DNA from: Thermus thermophilus
Lineage (GTDB): Bacteria; Deinococcota; Deinococci; Deinococcales; Thermaceae
Length of the DNA stretch: 64,000 nt
Reading direction: 5' to 3'
Assembly: GCF_019974155.1 (NCBI RefSeq)
Contig: NZ_AP025158.1
Span: forward strand, 496,001 to 560,000
The position numbers and the translations under genes are program-made. A model generated the notes under the pieces. It saw only the letters and a program-made list of their open reading frames with translations, made no database searches and was not told where the DNA came from. Positions 17,803 to 21,090 of the stretch are shown here, piece after piece. Within the stretch, counting starts at the first letter, position 1; each line of letters opens with the position of its first letter.

Positions 17803-18492
17803 TTACCCGCGCAGGGTGAGGAGGGCGAGGACAAAGGCGAGGTAGAGGAGGAGGCGGAGGGCGAGCGCCCTCCGCCCTAGGCGGATCCCGCCCTTAAGGG
17901 CCCCCTCCACCACCACGCCGACGATCCCCAGGAGGATGAAGAGGTCCCCCGGGCTCACCACCTTGCGCAAGGGGGGCAGGGGGATCACGTCCCCTAAGAA
18001 GGGCAGGCGCGTGGTCTCGTCCAGAAGGGCGTGGACCGCGTCCCCTTTGGTGCGCAGGAGGCCTGCAAACTCCGCGATGCCCGCCCGCTCCAGAGCGGCG
18101 AGGCTTACCGGCATGTGCCCCCCGTTGGCGAAGATCACCAGGGTGTTGAGGAAAAGGCCCAGGAGCACCAGGTAGAGGCTTTTCAGGTGGCGGTTCTGGT
18201 AAAGGCCGTAGCCCACCAGGAGGAGGACCAGAAGCTTGGCCAAGGGGCCGGCCACCTCCGGGGGGAAGAGGCCCCGGTAAGTCCCGTAGGCCAGCCCCCC
18301 TTCCAGGAGGGCGGCCAGGAAAAAGGCCCAGGCCGCCTTGAGCTCTATTCCTCCGAGGTCCTTGAGCCGGGCTCCGAGGGCAAGGGCGAGGCCGAGGCCG
18401 AAGAGGGCTGCGAAAAGGTAGAGCGTGATACCGATCCCTCCTTTGCCGCCAGGTAGGCGTGGCGGTCGCGCCAGATGGGGTTCTGCGCCCAA
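17803..18492 (-). CDS. DUF5317 family integral membrane protein
   Basis: About 209-229 residues with five to six hydrophobic segments. The central VIFANGGHMPVS and the LPFLGDVIPLP...VSPGDLFILLGI blocks are typical of DUF5317, a family often beside HD-GYP genes. The start is unclear. The first ATG in frame (18492) would overlap the HD-GYP gene by 148 nt and add a non-conserved Pro/Arg-rich leader. A strong AAAGGAGGG (18436-18444) lies 7 nt before an ATC codon (18429), where the hydrophobic part begins; no ATG, GTG or TTG is near. Function unknown. Confidence 0.75.
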   Translation of the reverse strand: MGAEPHLARPPRLPGGKGGIGITLYLFAALFGLGLALALGARLKDLGGIELKAAWAFFLAALLEGGLAYGTYRGLFPPEVAGPLAKLLVLLLVGYGLYQNRHLKSLYLVLLGLFLNTLVIFANGGHMPVSLAALERAGIAEFAGLLRTKGDAVHALLDETTRLPFLGDVIPLPPLRKVVSPGDLFILLGIVGVVVEGALKGGIRLGRRALALRLLLYLAFVLALLTLRG

Positions 18493-19526
18493 AGCTCGGT
18501 GAAGGCTTCCACCAACCGGGGGTCAAACTGGTGGCCGGAGAACTCCTGGACCTCCCTTAGCGCTTCCTCGGGGGTCTTGGCCTCGCGGTAGGGGCGGCCC
18601 GCGGTCATGGCCTCGTAAGCGTCCGCCAGGCCCACGATGCGGGCTTCCTCGGGGATCTCGTGCCCGGCGAGCCGTTTTGGGTAGCCCCGCCCGTCCCAGC
18701 GCTCGTGGTGGTAGAGGATGACGTTGTAGACGAGCTGGTCAAAGGCCACCTTCCGCGCCGGGGAGAGGAGCTCGGCCCCCTTGGTGGTGTGGCTTTGGAT
18801 GAGGGCGAACTCTTGGGGGGTGAGGGTTCCGGGCTTGAGGAGGACGGCCTCGGGGATGGCGATCTTGCCGATGTCGTGGAGCCGGGCCGCCCGGTAGATG
18901 GCCTGGGCGTAGGCCTCGTCCCCGTTTTTTATCTTCCGGGCCAGGTCGCGGGAGATGTCCGCCACGCGCTCGGAGTGGAGGCGGGTCATGGGGTCCTTGG
19001 CCTCCAGGGCGTTCATGAGAAGCTCCAGGGTGGTGTCAAAGGCCTGCTCCAGGCGCACCTTCTCGTCCCAGTAGAAGCGGCTGTAGTAGAGGGGGATGAG
19101 GAAGAAGAGCACCGTCCACCCGCCCCAGCCCGCGAGAAGGGGCGTCTCGTAGGCCCGGGCCAGGAGGAGGGCGATGGGGGAGAGGAGGAGGTAGCTGGCA
19201 GCAATCCACGCGGAGTTTTTGCGCCAAACCTCTCGCCATGGGACGTTGTTGGCCAGGTGGATGGCGGTGGTCACCAGGGTGGTGTTGGCGAGAAAAAAGG
19301 CCAGGGAGGCCGCGGCGATGCCCACCCCTGCGGATAGGTTCCAGGAACCGAGGTAAAGGGGGTTCTGCTGGAAAAACTGCCAGGCCAGGGCCGCCAGGGC
19401 GGTGGCCAGGCCGTCCTGGGAGCGGTTGAAGAGCTCCTTGTACCAGACCTTACGGCTCCATTGAAAGAGGAAGCTGAAAAGAGGGGGAATCCATGGAGGC
19501 GTTAAAACTACCAGCGCAAGAGCAAA
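18345..19526 (-). pseudogene. HD-GYP domain protein, 3' fragment (split by an IS)
   Basis: The larger, downstream part of a gene cut by the IS at 19531-20445. It encodes further membrane helices (about 19200-19500) and a full HD-GYP domain with LHDIGKIAIPEAVLLKPG, SHTTKGAELL, YHHERWDGRGYP and LADAYEAMTAGRPYR, motifs of cyclic-di-GMP phosphodiesterases. Removing the IS and one 4-bp duplicate joins this frame exactly to the fragment at 20446-20670, giving a 468-residue protein. The remaining frame stays open into the IS to 19586, so a truncated protein could still be made if transcribed. The 3' end overlaps the DUF5317 gene. Confidence 0.88.
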
Positions 19527-19530
19527 AATA

Positions 19531-19544
19531 CCTTCGTGTGCTAC
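19531..19544 (+). repeat. Left terminal inverted repeat of the IS
   Basis: CCTTCGTGTGCTAC, perfectly complementary to 20432-20445. The preceding AATA (19527-19530) is the target-site duplicate. Confidence 0.92.
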
Positions 19545-19584
19545 TTGATCTGGACCCCCGGGGTGTGAAAAAAGAGGGGGTGCC

Positions 19585-20430
19585 ATGCGGCAAGATCGTG
19601 AGCACCCCCTTTACCATCTTGACGCAGAGACCCTTCTCGTGGCTATCTACGTCTGGGTAGATGACGAACTGAAAGCCCTGCAGGCCCAAGGATTCAAGCT
19701 CCCCCCAAAGCAAAAGCACCAGAAGGCCACCCTGGCCGAGCTCTTGACCCTCGCCATCTTCGTCCTGTTGCAAGGCCAGGACCTCGCCAAAGGCTACCTG
19801 GCCGCCAAGACCACCCTCAAGGCCTACTTCCCCTCCCTCCCCCACCTCTCCCGCTTCTACCGGGTCCTTCAGAAGGCTCAGGGGTTGTTGGCTCACCTGG
19901 CCATAAGGCTCTCCGGAGGGCAAGGTCTTCTGCAGGTGGTGGACCTCAAACCCATCCCCCTGGCCCACGGCCACCGGATTCACGGCTTGGACCTTCCTGA
20001 GGCCGCTGTGGGGGTGGGCCCCCTGGGGGCTTTCGCGGGCTACGTTCTCATGCCGGTGATGAACGAGCGCGGCCTCTTTTTTCGTTGGGCTATCCTCCCC
20101 GGGAATGCCCGGGAGACCTGGGGGAGGGACCTGCTGGACGGTCTGCCCGCGGTCTTGGGGGACCGGGGCTTTCGCTGGGTCCAGGGGGTCAAGACGCCAC
20201 CCTATCGGGTCAGGGGAGGAACGGTGGTGGAGACGGGATGGAAAGAGTGGATGGGGAGGGTACGGAACTGGATTGAGACGCGGTTTAGCGTGATGGTGCG
20301 GTCTTTGGGGCTTCATCGGATAGAAGCGCGGTCCTACTGGGGGCTGGTGGCCCGGGTGAATCTCATCCTGCTCGTTCACAACCTCATACGTAGCCGGGTG
20401 CTTCTCAGGATGGCCGGGGTGGAGCTATGA
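19585..20430 (+). CDS. IS982-family-like transposase
   Basis: 281 residues, DDE-type. The N-terminal IYVWVDDELKAL, the central LLQVVDLKPIPL with a catalytic Asp, and the C-terminal RNWIETRFSVMVRSLGLHR / RSYWGLVARVNLILLVHNL segments resemble the IS982 group; the Glu of IETRFS is the probable third catalytic residue. One intact frame nearly fills the element, and its stop lies 1 nt before the right inverted repeat. No frameshift is seen, so the element is probably active. Family assignment is from memory of motifs, so a related IS4/IS5-superfamily group is possible. Confidence 0.85.
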   Translation: MRQDREHPLYHLDAETLLVAIYVWVDDELKALQAQGFKLPPKQKHQKATLAELLTLAIFVLLQGQDLAKGYLAAKTTLKAYFPSLPHLSRFYRVLQKAQGLLAHLAIRLSGGQGLLQVVDLKPIPLAHGHRIHGLDLPEAAVGVGPLGAFAGYVLMPVMNERGLFFRWAILPGNARETWGRDLLDGLPAVLGDRGFRWVQGVKTPPYRVRGGTVVETGWKEWMGRVRNWIETRFSVMVRSLGLHRIEARSYWGLVARVNLILLVHNLIRSRVLLRMAGVEL

Positions 20431-20431
20431 G

Positions 20432-20445
20432 GTAGCACACGAAGG
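20432..20445 (-). repeat. Right terminal inverted repeat of the IS
   Basis: Exact inverse of 19531-19544, followed by the second AATA duplicate at 20446-20449. Confidence 0.92.
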
Positions 20446-20670
20446 AATAAAAAGTTGGCTCATGCTGGCGCTCAGGGGAAGAGGTACACGAACAAAGACG
20501 CTCCACAGTATGAGTCCGCCCCAGAAAAGCAAGTCCAAAAGGCCCCAACGTATAGGTGTATCTCTATAACCCCAGAGTAAAAAGCCCTCAAGGGTCAGAA
20601 AGGTCAGAAAGGCCGAAAGAACCAAAAAGAGCACCCGCGGCGGGGGAAGCTCCAGGCGTCTAAAGGCCAT
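20446..20670 (-). pseudogene. HD-GYP domain protein, 5' fragment (membrane N-terminus)
   Basis: The first 75 codons of the split gene, from ATG at 20670. They encode two or three hydrophobic segments (PPRVLFLVLSAFLTFLTLEG and the following WGLLDLLFWGGLILWSVFV). The codon ATT in the AATA duplicate is followed by TTT on the far side (19526), so the original protein continued Ser-Gln-Leu-Phe-Ile-Phe-Ala-Leu-Ala-Leu. In the present state, translation ends six codons into the IS. A TACACT hexamer 9 nt before the ATG suggests a leaderless transcript. Confidence 0.85.
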
Positions 20671-20679
20671 GGTGGCTTG

Positions 20680-20708
20680 AGTGTAGCAAATTCCTCTCCT
20701 CCAGGCAA
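20680..20708 (-). promoter_or_regulatory. Promoter of the HD-GYP gene
   Basis: Minus strand: TTGCCT (20703-20708), 17-bp spacer, TACACT (20680-20685); ATG follows 9 nt later. It begins immediately past the terminator of the small peptide gene. Confidence 0.55.
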
Positions 20709-20734
20709 GAAAAAAGGGCCAGCTTCACTGGCCC
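20708..20734 (-). terminator. Rho-independent terminator of the 29-residue peptide gene
   Basis: GGGCCAG stem (20728-20734 with 20716-20722) with a 5-nt loop and TTTTTT on the minus strand (20710-20715). It starts only 5 bp after the peptide stop codon, so the peptide mRNA is short and monocistronic. Confidence 0.85.
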
Positions 20735-20739
20735 TGTCT

Positions 20740-20829
20740 TTACTCCCAGTGCATAGAAGCCCCAGCCGCGAGCCCGAGAGCGATCAAGCTGCCGAGAAGA
20801 ACCAACACGCGCGCGATCAGCTTCTTCAT
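20740..20829 (-). CDS. Small hydrophobic single-helix peptide (29 aa)
   Basis: A 29-residue frame: Met-Lys-Lys-Leu-Ile-Ala-Arg, a continuous hydrophobic stretch of about 18 residues, then Ala-Ser-Met-His-Trp-Glu. GGAGG at 20837-20841 lies 7 nt before the ATG at 20829 (an in-frame ATG at 20835 is too close to it). It has its own strong promoter (20886-20914) and terminator (20708-20734), which is much better evidence than the frame alone. It could be a membrane micropeptide, a signalling peptide or a type I toxin-like peptide; no homologue is recognised. The HD-GYP gene starts 70 bp downstream. Confidence 0.7.
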   Translation of the reverse strand: MKKLIARVLVLLGSLIALGLAAGASMHWE

Positions 20830-20885
20830 CTTCATCCCTCCTTTTCTTCCGCTTCCGGGGGGTCGGCCCCGTCTGCTTGTCTTTC

Positions 20886-20914
20886 ACTTTAGGGGGGGTC
20901 GTCAATACTGTCAA
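20886..20914 (-). promoter_or_regulatory. Promoter of the 29-residue peptide gene
   Basis: Minus strand: perfect -35 TTGACA (20909-20914), 17-bp spacer ending in seven C, -10 TAAAGT (20886-20891). It leaves a leader of about 50 nt before the ATG. Confidence 0.8.
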
Positions 20915-20992
20915 GAGGGGAAGAATAGGTATCAGCACGCAATAGATTGCTTTACTCCTCACATAATCCTGGAATGGTTAGTATCTTGCTTT

Positions 20993-21090
20993 AGCCTAGC
21001 ACAGACCGGCGCCGCTAGGCTTGGTGGGTAAACCCGGGGGTAGGGCCTGGGGTCCTTGCGGACGTCCAGGCCCCGGCGAACCCCTACCGC
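20993..21090. other. Structured non-coding stretch, possible small RNA
   Basis: The gene-free interval 20915-21178 contains nested inverted repeats. Stem A is 20993-21000 with 21014-21021 (8 bp). Stem B is 21039-21045 with 21082-21088 (7 bp), enclosing 21046-21050 with 21066-21070 (5 bp) and 21052-21055 with 21060-21063 (4 bp, TTGC loop). An alternative 8-bp pairing joins 21043-21050 with 21066-21073. The series of aligned stems is more than random GC content would suggest, but the strand and promoter are unclear, and it fits no RNA family I recognise. The rest of the interval (21091-21178) holds a G-run and nothing else notable. Confidence 0.35.

What the first reader, a model, noticed from the sequence alone, without database searches (positions are those of the whole stretch)
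20708..20914. Stand-alone transcription unit for a 29-residue membrane-type peptide
TTGACA-17-TAAAGT, a 50-nt leader, GGAGG at 7 nt, a 29-codon frame with one hydrophobic helix and a textbook terminator 5 bp after the stop. Such a complete unit is strong evidence for a real micropeptide gene missed by normal annotation. It lies just before the HD-GYP gene, so a regulatory or type I toxin-like role can be considered.
Basis: partly seen in the sequence, partly recalled or inferred. Interest (0 to 1): 0.6.

Follow-up and report, generated by a model that had tools for sequence, protein, structure and literature searches.

The report
Micropeptide paired with HD-GYP membrane sensor
A 29-residue membrane peptide gene is real, is kept in nearly all Thermus, Meiothermus and related species, and always sits directly before one particular membrane enzyme of the cyclic-di-GMP signalling type, which suggests it is that sensor's dedicated small partner.

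Summary
On the minus strand there is a TTGACA-17-TAAAGT promoter, a ~50-nt leader with a hairpin, GGAGG, a 29-codon frame (MKKLIARVLVLLGSLIALGLAAGASMHWE) and an intrinsic terminator; it is the only such unit in the 64 kb. The frame encodes protein: 26 of 27 Thermus genomes, 49 of 50 Thermaceae genomes and most genomes of a sister family have it, pN/pS ~0.36, L15, A17, G23 and A24 invariant, position 28 always W/F/Y. No Pfam, NCBIfam, PHROGs or PDB family matches. Wherever the flank can be read it lies just upstream of one gene, a MASE9-HD-GYP membrane phosphodiesterase with its own leaderless promoter. The two co-occur almost perfectly, and the one Thermus lacking the peptide lost it together with half of MASE9. 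In the window itself that HD-GYP gene is cut by an IS982-type element. Two AlphaFold models of read-through fusions turn the xxxW tail into a beta-strand, apparently beside MASE9's external beta element; MASE9 resembles ECF-transporter S-components. Best reading: a dedicated transmembrane subunit or tethered ligand of this sensor. Chief rival: precursor of a secreted pentapeptide signal. Type I toxin and attenuator are not supported. No expression or binding data exist.

The parts
20909..20914 (-). -35 element TTGACA of the micropeptide gene
   Evidence: conserved in Thermus alignment
20886..20891 (-). -10 element TAAAGT
20915..20933 (-). Conserved upstream box GATACCTATTCTTCCCCTC abutting the -35; unique in this genome; possible regulator site or UP element (inferred)
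20856..20871 (-). 5' leader hairpin CGGGG-ccgacc-CCCCG; a hairpin of other sequence lies at the same place in Meiothermus
20837..20841 (-). Shine-Dalgarno GGAGG
20740..20829 (-). 29-aa micropeptide ORF incl. stop, MKKLIARVLVLLGSLIALGLAAGASMHWE; N-in, C-out single helix plus xxxW tail (topology inferred)
20709..20735 (-). Intrinsic terminator (9-bp stem, T-tract)
20680..20685 (-). -10 element TACACT of the HD-GYP gene, 9 nt before its ATG (leaderless type), downstream of the terminator
   Evidence: PMC12340547
20446..20670 (-). 5' part of the MASE9-HD-GYP gene (start ATG 20670), cut by IS
19531..20445 (+). IS982-family-like insertion sequence, 14-bp perfect terminal repeats, AATA target duplication, transposase 19585-20430
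18345..19530 (-). 3' part of the MASE9-HD-GYP gene (rest of MASE9, canonical LHDIGK and HHERWDGRGYP)

Best explanation
The unit is a genuine protein-coding micropeptide gene. Its product is a single-span (N-in, C-out) membrane peptide that serves as the dedicated partner of the MASE9-HD-GYP protein encoded next to it. It is transcribed separately, from a promoter with near-consensus elements and a good ribosome site. Inferred mechanism: the helix lies against the MASE9 transmembrane domain and the periplasmic xxxW tail adds a beta-strand to MASE9's external beta element (L-P-x-x-A-x-x-S), near what would be the ligand pocket of an ECF S-component-like fold. By occupying or closing that site it sets the sensor's state, and so the HD-GYP phosphodiesterase output (presumably c-di-GMP hydrolysis). 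Shown by sequence: gene, coding selection, synteny, co-occurrence. Predicted: tail docking. Inferred: effect on enzyme activity and its sign.
For: Coding: 26/27 Thermus, 49/50 Thermaceae, most genomes of sister family f4; pN/pS 0.36 in Thermus and 0.34 in Meiothermus, lowest in residues 11-24. Partner: the same MASE9-HD-GYP family follows on the same strand in 46 of 51 loci; the other five are contig ends or broken/mis-called frames, while genes upstream differ between genera. Co-occurrence over 111 Deinococcota genomes, counting G062's divergent copy: 58 with both, 2 peptide-only (both cut by a contig end), 2 MASE9-only, 49 neither. G018 lost the peptide in a deletion that also took half of MASE9; G043 has both twice. 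Structure: two fusion models (pTM 0.74 and 0.79) give helix ~2-20/22 and strand 25-28; MASE9 strands 119-121/125-128 and 115-117/121-124 are the equivalent element, and in the better model no other strands exist. Top Foldseek hits are ECF S-components NikM, RibU, FolT. Helix divergence tracks MASE9 more than the HD-GYP domain of the same protein (partial r 0.33, none of 2000 permutations).
Against: No expression, localisation or interaction data. The fusion linker places the peptide near MASE9 artificially. The helix-face conservation moment is not significant (p 0.17-0.27). Tail-MASE9 co-variation is weak and not site-specific. In two Thermus genomes (G000, G005) the peptide stays intact although the HD-GYP gene is broken, which may be recent or may mean another role. 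Partial Mantel tests overstate significance with related sequences.
Confidence: 0.5

Rival explanations
1. The peptide is a prepropeptide: a 24-residue Sec signal peptide (MKK..K, hydrophobic core, AAGA) cut after A24 by signal peptidase I, releasing a pentapeptide xxxWx that the adjacent MASE9 sensor detects as an autocrine or quorum signal.
For: Residues 22-24 read A/V-G-A with invariant A24, position 25 is always S/G/D/T/H/N/A/E, and the tail is the only fast-evolving part (pN/pS 0.76 and 0.62) apart from an invariant aromatic: a constant leader with a variable core next to its would-be receptor. The predicted tail strand on MASE9 fits this equally well.
Against: L15, A17, L18 and G23 are invariant or nearly so over 55 distinct sequences, stricter than a disposable signal peptide should need. 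Tail pN/pS below 1 gives no sign of diversifying selection. No processing or import evidence; cleavage was not predicted with a trained tool.
Confidence: 0.22
2. It is a small membrane protein of another complex (respiratory or translocon), beside the HD-GYP gene by inherited gene order only.
For: Strong-looking promoter, core conservation, and persistence beside two broken HD-GYP genes.
Against: Flanking genes on the other side changed between genera while this pair stayed together; genomes without MASE9 lack it.
Confidence: 0.15
3. The unit is a cis-acting leader (attenuator or arrest peptide) whose translation sets readthrough into the HD-GYP gene.
For: It always lies directly upstream with a terminator in between; the leader is 92% identical within Thermus against 69% at third codon positions.
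Against: HD-GYP has its own -10 element 6-13 nt before its start in 44 of 46 loci, after the terminator, the leaderless arrangement common in this phylum (PMC12340547). The peptide has its own conserved sequence and no repeated regulatory codons; its last codon varies.
Confidence: 0.08
4. Type I toxin of a toxin-antitoxin pair.
For: Size and a single hydrophobic helix; stand-alone unit with terminator.
Against: No opposite-strand promoter in the window scan; single copy at one core locus; sequence kept over families; only chance-level phage-family matches.
Confidence: 0.02
5. Non-coding small RNA with an accidental ORF.
For: The leader is more conserved than synonymous sites.
Against: Frame open in all copies, codon-position pattern, pN/pS ~0.36, and other frames full of stops or with higher ratios.
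Confidence: 0.02

Closest known systems
MgrB, 47-aa membrane peptide of PhoQ (PMC2789325)
   Same: Small inner-membrane peptide dedicated to a membrane sensor, with direct interaction shown there.
   Different: MgrB acts on a histidine kinase and is made under feedback control by PhoP; here the gene is always adjacent to an HD-GYP phosphodiesterase gene, and no interaction has been tested. Sequence relation was not tested.
Signal-peptide-type pheromone precursors (Phr/PapR; AgrD by arrangement)
   Same: Short precursor beside a receptor gene; constant hydrophobic N-part, variable short C-end; AxA-like motif (comparison from general knowledge).
   Different: The hydrophobic part is far more constrained; receptor type is different; no Cys thiolactone motif; no processing shown.
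MASE9 (PF20972) and HD-GYP (PF13487 HD_5) proteins
   Same: The neighbour is a clear member of both (E 3e-26 and 5e-41).
   Different: No companion peptide for them was found in the papers searched; weak MASE9 paralogues in G008 and G018 have no peptide hit nearby.
ECF transporter S-components (NikM, RibU, FolT)
   Same: Predicted MASE9 fold is closest to these in the PDB (Foldseek probability 0.99-1.00 for the best, target TM ~0.6).
   Different: Foldseek E-values are weak (0.01-0.4); fused to HD-GYP rather than working with an ECF module.
Type I toxins (Hok/Ldr/Fst kind)
   Same: Length and one hydrophobic helix.
   Different: No antisense RNA signal, not multi-copy, conserved synteny with a signalling gene.

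Membership tests
Small-membrane-protein regulator of a membrane sensor (MgrB-like in function) | Under ~50 aa with one transmembrane helix | tested here: met
   29 aa; helix predicted at 2-20/22; membrane location itself not measured
Small-membrane-protein regulator of a membrane sensor (MgrB-like in function) | Genetic linkage to one sensor | tested here: met
Small-membrane-protein regulator of a membrane sensor (MgrB-like in function) | Physical contact and change of sensor activity | not testable with these tools
   Only a predicted tail strand beside MASE9
Type I toxin | Antisense RNA or overlapping antitoxin transcript | tested here: not met
   No opposite-strand promoter in the window; consensus scan only
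Type I toxin | Growth inhibition on expression | not testable with these tools
   Bench assay needed
Secreted peptide pheromone precursor | Sec signal with signal peptidase I site | tested here: inconclusive
   A/V-G-A at 22-24 and permissive residue 25 in 55 sequences; no trained predictor available
Secreted peptide pheromone precursor | Released mature peptide that acts on the receptor | not testable with these tools
   Needs mass spectrometry and a synthetic peptide assay
Leader peptide attenuator | Downstream gene depends on readthrough of the terminator | tested here: inconclusive
   Own -10 element before HD-GYP in 44/46 loci speaks against; transcription not measured
Known protein family (Pfam, NCBIfam, PHROGs, PDB) | Significant sequence match | tested here: not met
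MASE9-HD-GYP (neighbour) | MASE9 domain plus HD-GYP catalytic motifs | tested here: met
   LHDIGK and HHERWDGRGYP in the translation

The most novel reading that the evidence does not exclude
A peptide-gated second-messenger sensor: a clade-wide 29-aa peptide, tethered or cleaved to a pentapeptide xxxWx, is the built-in ligand of an ECF S-component-like MASE9 domain that controls an HD-GYP phosphodiesterase. That would be a peptide signalling system of a type I know of nowhere in the Deinococcus-Thermus group.
Probability: 0.3. Interest if true: 0.85.

Novelty: new variant of a known kind. Interest (0 to 1): 0.62.

Why it matters
It adds a protein family that the libraries searched do not hold, present in nearly every species of a well-studied thermophile group, and gives it a specific testable partner. 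If right, it gives a ligand or subunit for the orphan MASE9 sensor domain, relates that domain to vitamin and metal uptake S-components, and shows a tiny peptide controlling cyclic-dinucleotide signalling, which in Thermus acts on the type IV pilus motor PilF (PMC11731258).

Tried and rejected
Rfam search of the region: only the two tRNAs were genuine. Type I toxin: no antisense promoter in the window. Helix-face conservation: pattern visible but not significant, so not used as evidence. Tail co-variation with MASE9 loops: small and also seen with unrelated windows, so not used. First genome-wide pattern was mis-spaced and found nothing; the corrected pattern gave 29 hits, all Thermus, Meiothermus, Calidithermus or Thermaceae MAGs, and none in viral contigs. 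Thermus leader alignment A4 mixed strands and was discarded; redone. Apparent peptide absence in G062 was a search miss. Upstream box as regulon marker: it occurs once in the genome. Plasmid search with the DNA: no match. Papers on MASE9: none relevant.

Full report
CHECK OF THE OBSERVATION. All parts described are in the sequence on the minus strand: TTGACA (20914-20909), 17 nt, TAAAGT (20891-20886), a ~50-nt leader, GGAGG (20841-20837), ATG 20829, 29 codons, TAA 20742-20740, then a 9-bp stem-loop 20735-20715 and a T-run. A scan for the full combination (promoter of 10/12 or better, SD, ORF of 15-70 codons, terminator within 30 nt) finds just this unit on both strands of the window and none in 15 shuffled strands. 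A possible earlier in-frame ATG is ATA in two Thermus species, so the 29-residue product is right.

IT IS A PROTEIN-CODING GENE. Protein search finds it in 26 of 27 Thermus genomes and 49 of 50 Thermaceae genomes. A profile finds it also in most genomes of a second family of the order (f4; taken to be Marinithermaceae from its place in the order, not named by the tool), with one more found by eye (G062). A corrected pattern scan of 84,980 species gave 29 hits, all Thermus, Meiothermus, Calidithermus or Thermaceae MAGs. Within Thermus pN/pS is 0.36, within Meiothermus 0.34; the alternative frames have stops or higher ratios. Of 55 distinct sequences, L15, A17, G23 and A24 never change, L18, A21, A22, K2 and K3 almost never, position 7 is always K/R and position 28 always W, F or Y, while 25-27 and 29 vary freely. 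No Pfam, NCBIfam, PHROGs or PDB family matches.

THE TRANSCRIPTION UNIT IS CONSERVED TOO. The leader is 92% identical within Thermus against 69% at third codon positions, and folds into a CGGGG/CCCCG hairpin; Meiothermus has a GGAAG/CTTCC hairpin at the same place. A 19-nt box abutting the -35 is conserved in Thermus and occurs once in this genome. Their roles (mRNA stability, regulation) are inferred only.

ITS NEIGHBOUR IS ALWAYS THE SAME. In 46 of 51 loci spanning Thermus, Meiothermus, Calidithermus and the second family, the next gene on the same strand is one family, MASE9 plus HD-GYP. Of the five others, L044, L069 and L075 end at or just after the peptide, and L048 and L074 have broken or mis-called frames at the same place (MASE9 is detected there by profile). 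Upstream genes differ between genera: tRNA-Asp and tRNA-Phe in Thermus, other genes elsewhere. Over 111 Deinococcota genomes the tally is 58 with both, 2 with peptide only (G047, G066, contig ends), 2 with MASE9 only (G018, G082), 49 with neither. In G018 a deletion runs from just after the tRNAs into the middle of MASE9, removing the peptide as well. In G043 both genes are present twice. HD-GYP has its own -10 element 6-13 nt before its start in 44 of 46 loci, the leaderless layout reported as common in this phylum (PMC12340547), so the two genes look to be transcribed separately.

THE WINDOW'S OWN COPY. The HD-GYP gene here starts at 20670 and is cut by an IS982-type element, 19531-20445, with 14-bp perfect ends and an AATA duplication. 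G005 carries a different insertion in its MASE9. In both the peptide frame is still open. This genome has two other HD-GYP (HD_5) and five GGDEF matches, so cyclic-dinucleotide signalling exists.

STRUCTURE. Where peptide and HD-GYP are in one frame, reading the stops as Gly gives a natural read-through fusion, which was folded. Thermus-led model: pTM 0.74. Meiothermus-led model: pTM 0.79. In both the peptide is a helix followed by a strand at 25-28. MASE9 shows strands at equivalent places (119-121 and 125-128; 115-117 and 121-124). In the Meiothermus-led model these are the only other strands, so the tail strand must pair there; in the Thermus-led model short bridges near 191-195 also exist. 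By the positive-inside rule counted back from the cytoplasmic HD-GYP domain, that loop is periplasmic, which matches an N-in, C-out peptide (inference). Top PDB fold matches in both runs are ECF S-components (probability up to 1.00, E-values weak). Caveats: peptide pLDDT about 49-68, coordinates not visible, artificial linker, no MASE9-alone control.

INTERPRETATION. Best: a dedicated transmembrane partner or tethered ligand of the MASE9-HD-GYP sensor. The main rival is a secreted pentapeptide precursor, since residues 22-24 resemble a signal-peptidase I site and only the tail evolves fast; the strict conservation of the helix argues for the intact peptide. Attenuator, toxin and sRNA readings are disfavoured for the reasons listed under the rivals. 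The partner's enzymatic effect, its sign and the signal are unknown. Whether public annotation lists the gene was not testable here.

Noticed in passing
19531-20445: IS982-family-like insertion sequence with perfect 14-bp ends and AATA target duplication interrupts the MASE9-HD-GYP gene of this genome.
   Followed up: yes
G005 locus L113; G018 locus L110: Two other Thermus genomes have also lost this HD-GYP gene, by a different insertion and by a deletion, so it seems dispensable and is lost repeatedly (3 of 27).
   Followed up: partly
18345-20670 (minus), models of L056 and L037: The MASE9 sensor domain is predicted to have the fold of ECF transporter S-components (NikM, RibU, FolT), suggesting a small-molecule or peptide binding sensor.
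   Followed up: partly
20915-20933 (minus): A 19-nt box GATACCTATTCTTCCCCTC directly upstream of the -35 is conserved across Thermus and is unique in the genome.
   Followed up: partly
about 20976-21003 (minus): A second conserved stretch, TGTGCTAGGCT(GGGTAG), lies ~150-200 nt upstream of the micropeptide in Thermus and resembles the TGCTANNCT -10 motif of leaderless genes.
   Followed up: no
G008:C1:936508-936990 and G018:C1:57668-58048: Weak MASE9 paralogues without a peptide hit beside them; the peptide goes with one orthologous group only.
   Followed up: no
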